Positions 13,362 through 16,823 of a stretch of 64,000 nt of DNA are shown here, piece by piece. The stretch comes from Gammaproteobacteria bacterium. GTDB taxonomy: Bacteria > Pseudomonadota > Gammaproteobacteria > Pseudomonadales > Azotimanducaceae. The notes beneath the pieces were generated by a model that was not told where the DNA came from, made no database searches, and saw nothing but the letters and a program-made list of their open reading frames with translations. The stretch covers positions 1-64,000 of the forward strand of contig VXYL01000072.1 of assembly GCA_009846005.1 (NCBI GenBank), given 5' to 3'. Each line of letters opens with the position of its first letter. Position 1 is the stretch's first letter. Both the position numbers and the translations under genes were made by a program.

Positions 13362-13388
13362 ACGACGGCTCACGAGTTGCGTTCCGAA

Positions 13389-14240
13389 ATGAAGGACCAC
13401 GCCGAGCGGGTGGGCACGCTAGAGGATCAAGTTGCGTCGCTGGAACGTCGCTGGTCGCTCCGCGTACGAGAACGTCTTGACTCTTCCTTCAATTTCGTTG
13501 CTCGGGCCAGCCATGTGGATCTCGGGGAGGTCGTGGTGAAATTGGGGGTTCCAGGTGCCGAATTCGTGAGGGAACTGGACGCTCTCCGGGTGTATGGCGG
13601 TCAGGGAGCAGCGAGGCTGCTGAAGGCTGATCCGACAAACGGGGCGATGATGCTCGAGAGCGTAAGGCCCGGTAGCGCGCTTTCCAATGTGACTAGTGAC
13701 GAGGAAGCCACGTCGGCAACGGCAACCGTGATGCGGAGCCTTTGGCATCCCGTCCCTCGAAGACACGCCTTCGTGCCGATGTCCGAGTTTGAAGGCGGTG
13801 TCGAGTGGCTTCGAACCGGCTTGACGAACGAGCGTGGTCCGGTTCCGAGGACGTTGATGAGCCGGGCTGAGGGTCTGCTCCGGGACTTGGCGTCGGCAAA
13901 GGACGAACCGGTACTGCTCCACGGGGACCTGCACCACGACAACCTCCTGTCTGCCGAGCGTGCTCCTTGGCTCGCGATCGACCCCAAGGGCGTTGTTGGT
14001 GACCCGGCGTACGACGTCGGTCCCTTTCTGTATAACCGCTTGTTTGGGACTGACAATCCGGTCGGCACGCTAAGAAGGCGTGTCGACCAGATGTCCGAGG
14101 AGCTGGGCTTCGAACGAGATCGAATCGTGGGGGCTGCGATTCCCCGCGCCGTATTGGCGGCATGGCCTACCGGTTCAAGTGGCGAGCCGTGGAGGGACGC
14201 CCTGAAATGTGCCGAACTGCTGGCTGGCCTGACAACCTAG
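13389..14240 (+). CDS. APH(6)/hydroxyurea-kinase-type phosphotransferase
   Basis: 283 residues from ATG 13389; a TTG at 13377 would add four. The Brenner-type phosphotransferase motif LLHGDLHHDNLL and the following magnesium-binding AIDPKG identify the aminoglycoside/hydroxyurea resistance kinase family (streptomycin 6-kinase, StrB, hydroxyurea kinase). Known members phosphorylate streptomycin-like drugs or hydroxyurea in the cytoplasm, but many chromosomal homologues have unknown substrates, so resistance is unproven. The gene ends 30 bp before the target-site duplication of the adjacent transposon, so it lies just outside it and is not its cargo. Confidence 0.8.
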   Translation: MKDHAERVGTLEDQVASLERRWSLRVRERLDSSFNFVARASHVDLGEVVVKLGVPGAEFVRELDALRVYGGQGAARLLKADPTNGAMMLESVRPGSALSNVTSDEEATSATATVMRSLWHPVPRRHAFVPMSEFEGGVEWLRTGLTNERGPVPRTLMSRAEGLLRDLASAKDEPVLLHGDLHHDNLLSAERAPWLAIDPKGVVGDPAYDVGPFLYNRLFGTDNPVGTLRRRVDQMSEELGFERDRIVGAAIPRAVLAAWPTGSSGEPWRDALKCAELLAGLTT

Positions 14241-14269: not shown

Positions 14270-14277
14270 GACCTGTG
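14270..14277 (+). repeat. Target-site duplication, left copy
   Basis: GACCTGTG immediately outside the left terminal repeat. The identical octamer follows the right terminal repeat at 16816-16823. Confidence 0.88.
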
Positions 14278-14298
14278 GGTAGTGGCCTAGTTTGAATT
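14278..14298 (+). repeat. Left terminal inverted repeat
   Basis: 21 bp starting GGTAGTGGCCTAGTTTGAA. It matches the reverse complement of 16795-16815 at 20 of 21 positions. It includes the transposase stop codon (14287-14289). Confidence 0.88.
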
Positions 14299-15189
14299 GC
14301 TGGCCCGCTTCTTGTACGGGCCGCGTGGTCCCGGCTTCGGCGCGGCTTCCTCCACCATGCGAACAATGTCCCCGATCTCCCAAAGGCGGTCAGTGACGCC
14401 AGCGGCCATCGCGGGGGTGACGCGCAGCGATTGGTGGATGCGGCAGAAGTTGTACACCATGTAGTGAAGCGCCACGGCGTGGGCGTGGTTTTCGAGCTTC
14501 TTGGAGAATGCGTTTGTCAGCCGCGTGAATCGGCGCATCGACATTCGCATGGTGAGGTTCTGGCGTTCGACGTAGGACGTGCTGACGTGGCGCGGATCGG
14601 GGTTGCCCTCGATCCGGTGTTTCTCGATGCCGATGCACTCGCCGGGGCTGTAGCGCGTCTCCGGCTGGCTGTTGCCCGGCGTGGCGCCGTAGAGCTTGAT
14701 CAGCATGGCGTAGTCCACGTCGCCGCCGAAGGCACCCTCCACGGCTTCCAGGTAGGCCCGATGGCCGTCCGTGGTGAGTTGGACGCGATTGCGGAGCCGG
14801 GAGCGGAGATCGTCCATGAGGTCGATGGCCGTCATGCCCGAACGGTCGCCTACCCGCCATGCCGGCACCAGCTTGGTATCGGCGTCGATGGCAACCCATG
14901 TCCACACGTCCCCGGCTTCGCGGGGCGCGGACTTGGCGCGGGCGACGTTCTTTTGCTTGGCGTAGATGAAGCACCACGCCTCGTCAACCTGAATCCGGTT
15001 GCACTTGAGGTCGCGCAGCGTCCGGTCCTGATAGTCGGCGCACACCTTGGCGGCGTCCACCAACAGCTTGGTTGCGGTGACCCTCGAAACGTCCGCGATC
15101 CGGGCGGTTGCGCGGACGCTCATGCCTTCGGTGAGGCACTTGAGAATGAGGACTTTCTTGTGGGTTGGCAGCGTATTCATAGTGTCCAT
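14287..15189 (-). CDS. IS1-family-like DDE transposase
   Basis: 300 residues in a single frame, unlike classical IS1 which needs a frameshift; it resembles the single-ORF group often labelled IS1 family. An N-terminal helix-turn-helix (MSVRATARIADVSRVTATKL, about 24-43) precedes the DDE core: aspartate in IQVDEAWCF, aspartate in TTDGHRAYLEAVEGAF and glutamate in TSYVERQNLTMRM. The C terminus is basic and proline-rich (PGPRGPYKKR). The ATG at 15189 is followed by a second ATG three codons on. A possible promoter (TTGCAT, 16 bp, TACAAT) lies directly upstream, although the gene is also 42 nt behind the methyltransferase in the same direction. The gene appears intact and probably active. Confidence 0.9.
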   Translation of the reverse strand: MDTMNTLPTHKKVLILKCLTEGMSVRATARIADVSRVTATKLLVDAAKVCADYQDRTLRDLKCNRIQVDEAWCFIYAKQKNVARAKSAPREAGDVWTWVAIDADTKLVPAWRVGDRSGMTAIDLMDDLRSRLRNRVQLTTDGHRAYLEAVEGAFGGDVDYAMLIKLYGATPGNSQPETRYSPGECIGIEKHRIEGNPDPRHVSTSYVERQNLTMRMSMRRFTRLTNAFSKKLENHAHAVALHYMVYNFCRIHQSLRVTPAMAAGVTDRLWEIGDIVRMVEEAAPKPGPRGPYKKRASNSN

Positions 15190-15231
15190 ATTGTACCTGC
15201 AATCACGGCAAATGCAAGTATAATTAGGACA

Positions 15232-16407
15232 TTATGCGGCCATCTTTCGCTTGATCCATCCCTTGTCGGTGAGGCAGGCTAGCAGGTATTCCTGCGGCCG
15301 GTCGCCCTTGACGGAGTTGCAATGGCCGCAAAGCAACTGGAGGTTGCTGATGTGATCCGTGCCGCCTTTCGCTCGCGGGATTATGTGATCAACGTGGAAG
15401 TGACGGGGCGCAAAGTGGTCTTCGCACCCGTTGCAGTAGCCGCCCTGCTCGCCGTACAGACGCTGCTTGTTGCGGAGGTCGTTGTACGGGATGACTTCGC
15501 CAAGGTCGGTTCTGCTCGGCACGTCGTCACGTTCGACGCCGTCGAACATCATCCTGCATTCCTTGAGCATTCGATCCCTTACCAGATCGGCAGCCCTCGG
15601 CGCTATGTCGATTCCAACCCAACGGCGACCGAGCATATTGGCCGATATGCAGGTCGTCGCGCACCCGCAAAACGGGTCGAGTATCAAGTCGCCTTGGTTG
15701 CTGCTGGCGAGAATCACGCGATCCAACAGTTCCAGTGGCTTTTGCGTGGGGTAGTCGCACCGCTCATCGCCGTAGGGGCGGCTGATGCCAGTCCACCAAT
15801 CCTCGACGATCTTGCCATCTGGGTGCCTTGTGTAGACCCTTCCGGGGGCGCGGCTGGCCTTGTCGGTGAACACCGTCGCCTTGTACTCCGAAGCGTAGGG
15901 AACGCGAACCGCGTCCGCGTTGAAGCATCGGCCATCCGATGGAGAATACCTAAGCAACACGTCATGCTTGCGTGGGAAATCGCGCTTTGGCGCGCCGCCA
16001 CCGGCATAGCACCACACAATCTCATTGCGGAAGCTCGCCTTCCCGAATATCGAGTCCATCAGCACCTTGAGGTAGTGACTGGCATTCCAATCACAGTGGA
16101 GGTAGACGGTGCCAGCGGGCTTTAGGAGACGCCTCAATTCGATGATCCGAACGGCCATGTAGATGAGATAGCTCATCATGGAGTCGCCGTGAATCTCGCG
16201 GGTGGCGGTCATCAGGGAGTACACACCGGGGAAGTCGTGCTTGATCTCGCCATGCCACGCGAGATTAACCTCATCCAAGCACCAGGTATCTTTGAACGCC
16301 GCACCAGCGGCCTTGCTCCCGATGGGAGCGGCATAGTCATGGTTCGAGTTGAACGGCGGATCTAGGTAGATCAGATCGAACGTTGCGGAGTTGAGCCCCC
16401 GCATCAC
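15232..16407 (-). CDS. DNA methyltransferase-HNH nuclease fusion, transposon cargo
   Basis: 391 residues from GTG 16407, the first canonical in-frame start. Methyltransferase motif IV LIYLDPPFN comes early and the AdoMet-binding LDPFCGCATT late (about 240), a beta-class order typical of N6-adenine/N4-cytosine enzymes. The C terminus (about 320-375) is an HNH nuclease module: CNGC, HVDHIIPRAKGG, LLCGHCNSVKGD. The recognisable fold starts further upstream (TIWIGDNLDVMRG), so the true start is probably before 16440. Upstream, the frame crosses a 12-cytosine tract and hits the stop of the small gene at 16504-16506. With 12 cytosines no ATG/GTG/TTG upstream reads in; with 11, GTG 16507 would. The gene may be switched off, phase-variable, or mis-sequenced here. 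Confidence 0.82.
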   Translation of the reverse strand: MMRGLNSATFDLIYLDPPFNSNHDYAAPIGSKAAGAAFKDTWCLDEVNLAWHGEIKHDFPGVYSLMTATREIHGDSMMSYLIYMAVRIIELRRLLKPAGTVYLHCDWNASHYLKVLMDSIFGKASFRNEIVWCYAGGGAPKRDFPRKHDVLLRYSPSDGRCFNADAVRVPYASEYKATVFTDKASRAPGRVYTRHPDGKIVEDWWTGISRPYGDERCDYPTQKPLELLDRVILASSNQGDLILDPFCGCATTCISANMLGRRWVGIDIAPRAADLVRDRMLKECRMMFDGVERDDVPSRTDLGEVIPYNDLRNKQRLYGEQGGYCNGCEDHFAPRHFHVDHIIPRAKGGTDHISNLQLLCGHCNSVKGDRPQEYLLACLTDKGWIKRKMAA

Positions 16408-16440
16408 GTCGAGGTTGTCACCAATCCAAATGGTGTCCTT

Positions 16441-16454
16441 GGCCCAATTGGGCC
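16441..16454. repeat. Perfect 14-bp palindrome at the methyltransferase 5' end
   Basis: GGCCCAATTGGGCC is fully self-complementary and lies between the cytosine tract and the conserved methyltransferase N terminus. It could be an operator or a target of the encoded enzyme, or chance. Confidence 0.45.
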
Positions 16455-16461
16455 GGACTTC

Positions 16462-16473
16462 GGGGGGGGGGGG
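16462..16473 (-). repeat. Homopolymeric tract of 12 C (minus strand) before the methyltransferase
   Basis: Twelve uninterrupted guanines on the plus strand, preceded by C and followed by CCGCG. On the coding strand it lies 31 nt after the small gene's stop and before the conserved methyltransferase N terminus. Tracts of this length slip during replication. Frame analysis: 11 or 14 cytosines connect GTG 16507 to the methyltransferase; 12 does not. Confidence 0.85.
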
Positions 16474-16503
16474 CCGCGTTCCCTCCCGCCCGCCTTGAGC
16501 GTA

Positions 16504-16716
16504 TCACGCCGCCCCGTTCGCGGCCTTCCTGCGTCTCGCCTCGACGCCCTGCATGGCGATCTCGCGCCGTCGCTCCGGCGTGAGCTTCGCGGCGCGGGCA
16601 TGACCGCCCTTGGCGCGGCCAGTGGGCGCGTCGTGCGAATCGTTGGGAATCTGCCCGGTGGTCATGTCCACCACCATCTTGGCGAGTTGGTTCATGTCGC
16701 GGGGGCGCTTCGGCAT
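16504..16716 (-). CDS. Small basic protein (MPKRPRD type), transposon cargo
   Basis: 70 residues. The ATG at 16716 is chosen over the longer ATG/GTG option because AAGGAG lies six bases upstream. The protein starts MPKRPRDMNQLAKMVVDMTTG and ends with a basic segment, KGGHARAAKLTPERRREIAM then ARRRK, recalling small histone-H1-like or nucleic-acid-binding proteins of unknown function. It is the first gene of the element and its TGA overlaps a GTG (16507) that would start the methyltransferase in the 11-cytosine state. A role in DNA or RNA binding, or in regulating the element, is only a guess. Confidence 0.6.
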   Translation of the reverse strand: MPKRPRDMNQLAKMVVDMTTGQIPNDSHDAPTGRAKGGHARAAKLTPERRREIAMQGVEARRRKAANGAA

Positions 16717-16767
16717 GGGTGACTCCTTAGTCGCGTTAACCAAGCGGTTGCAGTATCGTTACACCGA

Positions 16768-16788
16768 GTCTCCCACTTTTCGGGAGAC
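16768..16788 (-). other. Hairpin in the transposon leader
   Basis: GTCTCCC (16768-16774) and GGGAGAC (16782-16788) form a perfect 7-bp stem with a 7-nt loop. It lies between the right terminal repeat and the first cargo gene, so in its 5' leader. No thymine run follows on the minus strand, so it is not an obvious terminator; attenuation or blocking of read-through from outside is possible. Confidence 0.5.
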
Positions 16789-16794
16789 GCCGCA

Positions 16795-16815
16795 AATTCA
16801 AACTAGACCACTACC
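16795..16815 (-). repeat. Right terminal inverted repeat
   Basis: 21 bp ending CTAGACCACTACC on the plus strand. It is the inverted partner of 14278-14298 with one mismatch. Confidence 0.88.
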
Positions 16816-16823
16816 GACCTGTG
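16816..16823 (+). repeat. Target-site duplication, right copy
   Basis: GACCTGTG directly after the right terminal repeat, identical to 14270-14277. Confidence 0.88.

What the first reader, a model, noticed from the sequence alone, without database searches (positions are those of the whole stretch)
16462..16473. Twelve-cytosine tract placed to phase-vary the methyltransferase
With 12 cytosines no canonical start upstream reads into the methyltransferase frame. With 11 (or 14), GTG 16507, which overlaps the small gene's stop in the GTGA arrangement seen at many junctions in this window, reads straight in. Slippage would switch the enzyme and thereby genome methylation (a phasevarion) in a transposon-borne gene.
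Basis: inference. Interest (0 to 1): 0.85.

Follow-up and report, generated by a model that had tools for sequence, protein, structure and literature searches.

The report
Slippery on/off switch in jumping methyltransferase
A jumping DNA element carries the gene of a predicted DNA-methylating and likely DNA-cutting enzyme behind a run of twelve Cs that likely works as a slip-prone on/off switch; related genes in other bacteria carry different repeats at the same spot, and one genome holds three copies of a related jumping element that differ only by one C in the run.

Summary
The C12 run (G12 on +, 16462-16473) is real and the only C/G run above 7 in the window. It lies in a clean IS1-like element (inverted ends 20 of 21, 8-bp target duplication), between a small gene and an N6-adenine-type methyltransferase fused to an HNH domain. 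At 12 Cs no ATG/GTG/TTG upstream is in frame; lengths one shorter or longer each bring one into frame. A start at GTG 16407 would cut invariant residues and the first predicted strand. Of 67 family loci, the window's included, 8 carry a slippable repeat (C, G, GA or GCAA units) in the 75 nt before the conserved motif, 0.38 expected; 5 of these 8 lack an in-frame start against 1 of 59 others. With probes from other loci, 6 of 8 have a transposase nearby against 13 of 59. One genome has three IS1595-type copies with their own target duplications, identical except C8/C7/C7. Phase variation is well supported; reads at this locus, enzyme activity and a regulon (phasevarion) are untested.

The parts
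14278..16815 (.). Whole IS1-like element with passenger genes (2538 bp), one copy in the assembly
   Evidence: Inverted ends plus target duplication; single match by DNA search of its own genome
14278..14298 (+). Left terminal inverted repeat GGTAGTGGCCTAGTTTGAATT
   Evidence: 20 of 21 complementary to 16795-16815, counted by eye
16795..16815 (+). Right terminal inverted repeat AATTCAAACTAGACCACTACC
14270..14277 (+). Target duplication GACCTGTG (left); could be read as up to 10 bp, CGACCTGTGG, depending on where the inverted end is cut
16816..16823 (+). Target duplication GACCTGTG (right)
14287..15189 (-). Transposase, IS1-like (PF03400; below NCBIfam's IS1 cutoff)
   Evidence: 58% identical over 296 aligned positions to the transposase of L108
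15232..16461 (-). Methyltransferase-HNH reading frame downstream of the tract, open until the stop at 15232-15234
15583..16377 (-). N6_N4_Mtase domain (PF01555); fold nearest to M.BceJIV, MboIIA and M.RsrI
15298..15435 (-). HNH endonuclease domain (PF01844/PF14279)
   Evidence: C347, C350, D362, H374, N377 and N386 invariant in 41 aligned sequences
16411..16449 (-). Conserved N-terminal stretch NWAKDTIWIGDNL with invariant N9, D19, L21
   Evidence: 146 of 160 listed homologues have the GDNL-type motif, 14 are annotated to start just after it
16462..16473 (-). C12 tract, the proposed slip site
16505..16507 (-). GTG overlapping the small gene's TGA; in frame with the enzyme at 11 or 14 C
16599..16601 (-). 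ATG inside the small gene, in another frame; in frame with the enzyme at 10 or 13 C
16405..16407 (-).
16504..16716 (-). Small gene upstream of the enzyme (70 aa from ATG 16716), no family match
   Evidence: relatives at the same place in L010 (57% identity) and L006 (37%)

Best explanation
The C12 run lies between a small gene's stop and the first conserved residues of a transposon-borne methyltransferase-HNH gene and likely works as a slipped-strand contingency switch: at 12 Cs no ATG, GTG or TTG upstream is in frame with the enzyme, and a slip of one C either way would bring one into frame. Shown: the tract, the frames, the open frame behind it, the element's ends, repeats of several kinds at the same place in relatives, and a tract-length difference between otherwise identical copies in another genome. 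Inferred: that slippage at this locus is frequent, that translation starts at GTG 16507 (coupled to the small gene by GTGA) or in the homologous frame from further upstream, and that methyltransferase and HNH nuclease go ON and OFF together because they are one polypeptide. Untested: enzyme activity, methylation target, and whether the switch serves a phasevarion, phage restriction or control of the element itself.
For: Frames and starts. The N-terminus of a complete enzyme must lie upstream of GTG 16407: N9, D19 and L21 are invariant in 41 aligned sequences (40 homologues that I chose among those with a full leader); 146 of 160 proteins listed by two searches keep the motif; the model has strand 14-17 and helix 20-26 in blocks of mean pLDDT 88 and 91, which a start at residue 23 would cut. 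Survey: 69 distinct family loci minus L082 (poly-G/C cluster beside a contig end) and L085 (second copy of L083's element) = 67, the window's included; 8 have a C/G run of 7 or more, a dinucleotide x5 or a tetranucleotide x4 in the 75 nt before the motif; 0.38 expected from the rest of the same loci (23 such repeats in 307,638 nt), Poisson P 7e-9. No in-frame start: 5 of 8 against 1 of 59, P 3e-5. The repeats are of different kinds: C12, C14, C10, C10, C8, G10, (GA)10, (GCAA)4. Transposase nearby: 6 of 8 against 13 of 59, P 0.005, when each locus is tested only with probes from other loci. L006 has the window's gene order (small gene, C14, enzyme, IS1-like transposase), with an ATG just before the tract that is out of frame at 14 C. 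G587: three 2.5-kb IS1595-type copies with separate 8-bp target duplications; two of the three pairs align with 0 mismatches and one gap, the gap being the C tract: C8 in frame with an ATG, C7 (two copies) not.
Against: No reads: a mixture of lengths at this locus is not shown, and homopolymer length in an assembly can be off by one. The element is single-copy here. In 59 of 67 family loci there is no such repeat, so the switch is an option in this family, not a defining trait; L010, 72% identical in DNA to the window's element over 671 nt, starts at a plain ATG with no run above C6. Three of the 8 repeat-bearing loci are in frame as found, which fits a switch but also fits no switch. L009 has a second frame break before its HNH part. 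G587's C8/C7 difference could be a sequencing error, its method being unknown. The loci are not a random sample (up to 30 fetched per search; 5 matches got no locus; 19 more distant loci were left out), and the tests treat them as independent.
Confidence: 0.76

Rival explanations
1. The tract is a neutral homopolymer whose length was mis-assembled; the true gene is in frame and constantly expressed.
For: Assemblies are weak at long homopolymers (general knowledge); this assembly has a poly-G/C cluster beside a gap and runs at contig starts.
Against: The window tract is inside a contig with no N nearby. Relatives have repeats at the same place far above expectation, and GA and GCAA repeats are not poly-G artefacts.
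Confidence: 0.1
2. A fixed OFF, decaying passenger gene: the copy is a pseudogene and the tract is incidental.
For: No in-frame start at 12 C; single copy; some relatives have internal stops and L009 has a second frame break before its HNH part.
Against: The frame behind the tract is open over 396 codons with methyltransferase and HNH residues conserved. The 5 repeat-bearing loci without an in-frame start keep 322 to 467 open codons from the motif on.
Confidence: 0.06
3. RNA-level slippage (polymerase slippage or ribosomal frameshifting on the tract) gives constant low expression without heritable switching.
For: Long homopolymers can slip at transcription, and some IS elements use programmed frameshifts (general knowledge).
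Against: (GA)10 and (GCAA)4 at the same place are usual units of DNA slippage rather than frameshift signals (general knowledge). G587 shows the change in DNA. It may coexist with phase variation.
Confidence: 0.05
4. Translation starts at GTG 16407 or ATG 16404, downstream of the tract, so its length does not matter.
For: The protein database holds this gene from there (P0001, 391 aa), and 13 others of 160 listed homologues likewise.
Against: It removes invariant N9, D19, L21 and the first predicted strand.
Confidence: 0.03

Closest known systems
Phase-variable DNA methyltransferases with simple sequence repeats (phasevarions, e.g. Type III mod genes; PMC11868660 passages, PMC6265453 and PMC8125046 listing only)
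   Same: A simple repeat at the 5' end of a methyltransferase reading frame puts the gene in or out of frame by its length (5' position in mod genes recalled).
   Different: Here a Type II-like beta-class methyltransferase fused to HNH, sitting inside an IS element in a metagenome-type assembly; no regulon shown.
Insertion sequences with passenger genes; R-M genes carried by IS/transposons (PMC4176335, passages)
   Same: Clean inverted ends and target duplication around a transposase and extra genes.
   Different: The passenger has its own slip tract; copies of a related element in one genome differ in phase.
IS1 and IS1595 families
   Same: PF03400 match in the window; IS1595 transposases in L107, L111, L018; 8-bp target duplications.
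   Different: The window transposase scores 61 bits against NCBIfam's IS1 cutoff of 100; the element carries two passengers.
Beta-class N6-adenine methyltransferases M.BceJIV, MboIIA, M.RsrI
   Same: Fold match (Foldseek E 4e-17 to 1e-15) and sequence match.
   Different: Extra C-terminal HNH domain; specificity unknown.

Membership tests
Simple-repeat phase-variable (contingency) locus | Slippable repeat placed so that its length sets the reading frame | tested here: met
Simple-repeat phase-variable (contingency) locus | Frame behind the repeat open; complete product needs a start upstream of the repeat | tested here: met
   (conservation and model, no experiment)
Simple-repeat phase-variable (contingency) locus | Repeat length varies between copies or strains of the same locus | tested here: inconclusive
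   Not testable at this single-copy locus; seen for a related element in G587, C8/C7/C7
Simple-repeat phase-variable (contingency) locus | Reversible switching of expression in a population | not testable with these tools
   Needs reads or a reporter
Phasevarion | Switch changes genome methylation and the expression of many genes | not testable with these tools
   No methylome or expression data
IS with passenger genes | Inverted ends and target duplication bracket transposase and extra genes | tested here: met
IS1 family | IS1-type transposase | tested here: inconclusive
   PF03400 32.8 bits over its cutoff 24.1; NCBIfam IS1 61.1 bits, below its cutoff 100
Single-chain Type II restriction-modification enzyme | Methyltransferase and nuclease domains in one polypeptide | tested here: met
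   PF01555 and PF01844 in one frame
Single-chain Type II restriction-modification enzyme | Cleaves unmethylated sites and methylates the same sites | not testable with these tools
   Needs an assay

The most novel reading that the evidence does not exclude
A whole class of mobile contingency loci: IS1-like and IS1595-type elements in several bacterial groups carry a methyltransferase-HNH switch whose slip repeat has arisen repeatedly (C, G, GA, GCAA), so every copy of the jumping element is an independently flipping ON/OFF epigenetic or restriction module, and transposition spreads the switch itself to new genomes.
Probability: 0.5. Interest if true: 0.8.

Novelty: new variant of a known kind. 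Interest (0 to 1): 0.66.

Why it matters
The phase-variable methyltransferases named in the passages I saw (PMC11868660) belong to pathogens such as meningococcus, pneumococcus and S. suis. Here the switch lies inside an insertion sequence, and copies of a related element within one genome are in different phases. If true, contingency loci can be acquired ready-made by transposition, and the fused nuclease would let a restriction-type module switch without harming its host, because one slip silences both halves (inference). It also warns that gene finders may annotate such genes as short, seemingly intact proteins and hide the switch: 14 of 160 listed homologues, the window's among them, start just after the motif (DNA seen for the window only).

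Tried and rejected
Viral contigs: no relative by protein and no match to a typed degenerate DNA pattern of the leader. The window's own phylum, drawn evenly, gave matches in 2 of 299 genomes, one of them the window's own, and its order in 5 of 293, so I centred further searches on genomes that held relatives. Dropped from the final counts: L082/L109 (C19 and two G10 runs within about 110 nt of a contig end, suspected artefact) and L085 (second copy). A7/T7 runs before L132, L138 and L142 are not among the repeats counted; the earlier, looser counts are 8 of 57 and 13 of 69. 19 more distant loci did not fit the family pattern. My first transposase contrast, 7 of 8 against 13 of 59 with P 6e-4, used probes that I had taken from the repeat-bearing loci themselves and is therefore biased; with each locus's own probe left out and hits limited to 1500 nt from the gene it is 6 of 8 against 13 of 59, P 0.005. 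Some loci hold shorter flanks, and transposases of other families were not looked for. An idea that the window has ACG where L010 has its ATG was dropped: the placement depends on the alignment. No family match for the small protein in Pfam, NCBIfam or PADLOC. PADLOC gave Type II, Type III and orphan methyltransferase matches in the 25 shown of 97. Literature: 10 searches of the open-licence PMC library and passages of PMC6211672, PMC11868660, PMC7371123, PMC4176335 and PMC9296519 showed no report of a phase-variable methyltransferase inside an IS. Most subscription papers are not held, so this is weak evidence of absence.

Full report
Observation. The run is twelve G on the + strand at 16462-16473, twelve C on the strand of the methyltransferase. 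The window has no other C/G run longer than seven and no N. In the shuffle control nine-G matches are not rare in this GC-rich sequence (mean 1.33 per shuffle; 9 of 100 shuffles reached the 4 overlapping matches found), so the weight of the argument is on position, not on length.

Anatomy. The run lies in a mobile element from 14278 to 16815: ends GGTAGTGGCCTAGTTTGAATT and AATTCAAACTAGACCACTACC, and GACCTGTG on both sides. On the minus strand it holds, in order, a small gene (16504-16716), the tract, a methyltransferase with a C-terminal HNH domain (to 15232; PF01555 E 7e-41, PF01844 E 2e-13) and an IS1-like transposase (14287-15189). The element gives one match in its own assembly, and the enzyme has no second full-length relative there: the other three matches cover 56 to 85 residues of the query.

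Frames. At 12 C the enzyme's frame runs back to the small gene's stop without a start. Only multiples of three are without a start, and a slip of one in either direction opens a route. Which route is used is open: GTG 16507 overlaps the small gene's stop as GTGA, which favours coupling, but four homologous proteins share the leader AGGRE..PPP, which in the window is read in the other frame (P0042, P0052, P0058, P0123; their DNA was not seen), and L010, 72% identical in DNA over 671 nt, starts its enzyme in that same relation to the small gene.

Why the tract matters for the protein. Homologues share NWxxQTIWTGDNLDIMRGMNS before DPPF; 146 of the 160 distinct proteins listed by two searches (best 120 of 8000 each) have the GDNL-type motif and 14, the window's among them, begin just behind it. 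In 41 aligned sequences, chosen from those with a full leader, N9, D19 and L21 are invariant. The AlphaFold2 model (mean pLDDT 75.5, pTM 0.75) has its first strand at 14-17 and first helix at 20-26, in blocks of mean pLDDT 88 and 91; GTG 16407 is residue 23. The fold is that of beta-class N6-adenine methyltransferases (M.BceJIV, MboIIA, M.RsrI). A start at GTG 16407 is therefore unlikely to give a working enzyme.

Relatives. I collected loci by one scan of genome contigs (34 loci) and nine searches with the enzyme as query over 1,099 genome visits, repeats included. Distinct loci fitting the family pattern: 69; 19 more distant ones were left out. After dropping L082 and L085, 67 remain, the window's included. 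In the 75 nt before the motif 8 carry a repeat: window C12, L006 C14, L009 G10, L018 (GCAA)4, L058 C10, L083 C8, L089 (GA)10, L092 C10. The same loci outside that stretch have 23 such repeats in 307,638 nt, so 0.38 are expected (P 7e-9). Five of the 8 have no in-frame start, against 1 of 59 others (L078, which has a stop in its leader); the other three, L018, L058 and L083, are in frame.

Transposases. By tblastn with six transposases, 7 of 8 repeat-bearing loci have one within 4 kb against 13 of 59 others, but the probes came from repeat-bearing loci. With a locus's own probe left out and a limit of 1500 nt from the gene it is 6 of 8 against 13 of 59, P 0.005. The transposases are IS1-like (window, L006), IS1595 (L009, L018, L083, L089) and IS5-like (L092, found only with its own probe). 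L058 has none in the stretch held. These tests treat loci as independent, and the sample is not random.

Anatomy repeats itself. L006 (titled a gammaproteobacterial assembly) has small gene, ATG ACC TCT A-C14, enzyme, an IS1-like transposase 58% identical to the window's, inverted ends and the duplication CGACCTGC; the two flanking reading frames look by eye like pieces of one amine-oxidase-type gene, which I did not test. L009 (titled Acidimicrobiales) has ATG running straight into the G run, downstream of an IS1595 transposase; its HNH part lies in another frame. L089 has its ATG overlapping the transposase stop as ATGA and running into the GA repeat.

Length change seen. In G587 three copies of a 2.5-kb IS1595-type element lie on one 2.16-Mb contig (genome about 2.2 Mb). 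They have their own 8-bp duplications (TTATTTTA, AAATTAAA, AAAATTTA). Pairs a-b and a-c align over 2532 and 2535 positions with no mismatch and one gap; the third pair aligns over 2548 with 2 mismatches and 2 gaps, which must lie outside the stretch both share with copy a. The gap is the C run: C8 in one copy, in frame with an ATG, and C7 in two, without an in-frame start. This is the most direct sign that the tract changes faster than the rest of the element; a sequencing error at C7/C8 is not excluded.

Cautions. The window's assembly has a poly-G/C cluster beside an N gap (C81) and runs at contig starts (C52, C79). The window's run is not of that kind, but its exact length may be one off. 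The five repeat-bearing loci without an in-frame start keep 322-467 open codons from the motif on, which speaks against plain decay, with L009's second frame break as an exception.

What it works like and what it is. It works like a simple-repeat contingency locus of the phase-variable methyltransferase kind. Membership is met for the architecture and unproven for switching. It is an IS with passengers by its ends. Whether the benefit is methylation of many genes (phasevarion), phage restriction, or control of the element's own transposition is unknown. The fusion with HNH would let one slip silence methylation and the putative nuclease together; this is an inference from domain order. R-M genes on IS/transposons are reported (PMC4176335, passages) and phase-variable methyltransferases are well known (PMC11868660, passages); my 10 searches of the open PMC library found no report that joins the two.

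Noticed in passing
G000:C6:76763-76773 (L187:2264-2274): Another G11 run in the same genome, in the spacer just before an ATG and behind a long frame that looks by eye like an RND pump; a possible second slip site acting on expression rather than frame.
   Followed up: partly
G000:C81:88323-88482 (L185): Cluster G17, C22, N gap, G15, G10, C21 that looks like an assembly artefact; a warning for homopolymer finds in this assembly.
   Followed up: partly
window 14270-14277 and L108:1934-1941: The two IS1-like insertions hit similar targets, GACCTGTG and CGACCTGC, both in a CGACCTG context; perhaps a target preference (two cases only).
   Followed up: no
L002, L005, L014, L032 and other loci of G299: One assembly titled Poribacteria gives 15 matches to this methyltransferase (5 of them not fetched); none of the loci fetched and fitting the family pattern had a counted repeat.
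   Followed up: partly
L089 (G628:C7): (GA)10 directly after an ATG that overlaps the IS1595 transposase stop (ATGA): a dinucleotide repeat in the same place of the same family.
   Followed up: yes
window 16504-16716; L010:3709-3930; L006:3699-3917: Small protein upstream of the enzyme, 57% and 37% identical to the window's, with a shared GGxARA...RRxxIA motif and no family match.
   Followed up: partly
window 13377-14240: APH_6_hur family kinase gene (PF04655) directly beside the element's left end.
   Followed up: no
G000:C94:525-534 (L186): G10 run on a small contig that also holds a distant methyltransferase match and short repeats of CRISPR-array look.
   Followed up: no
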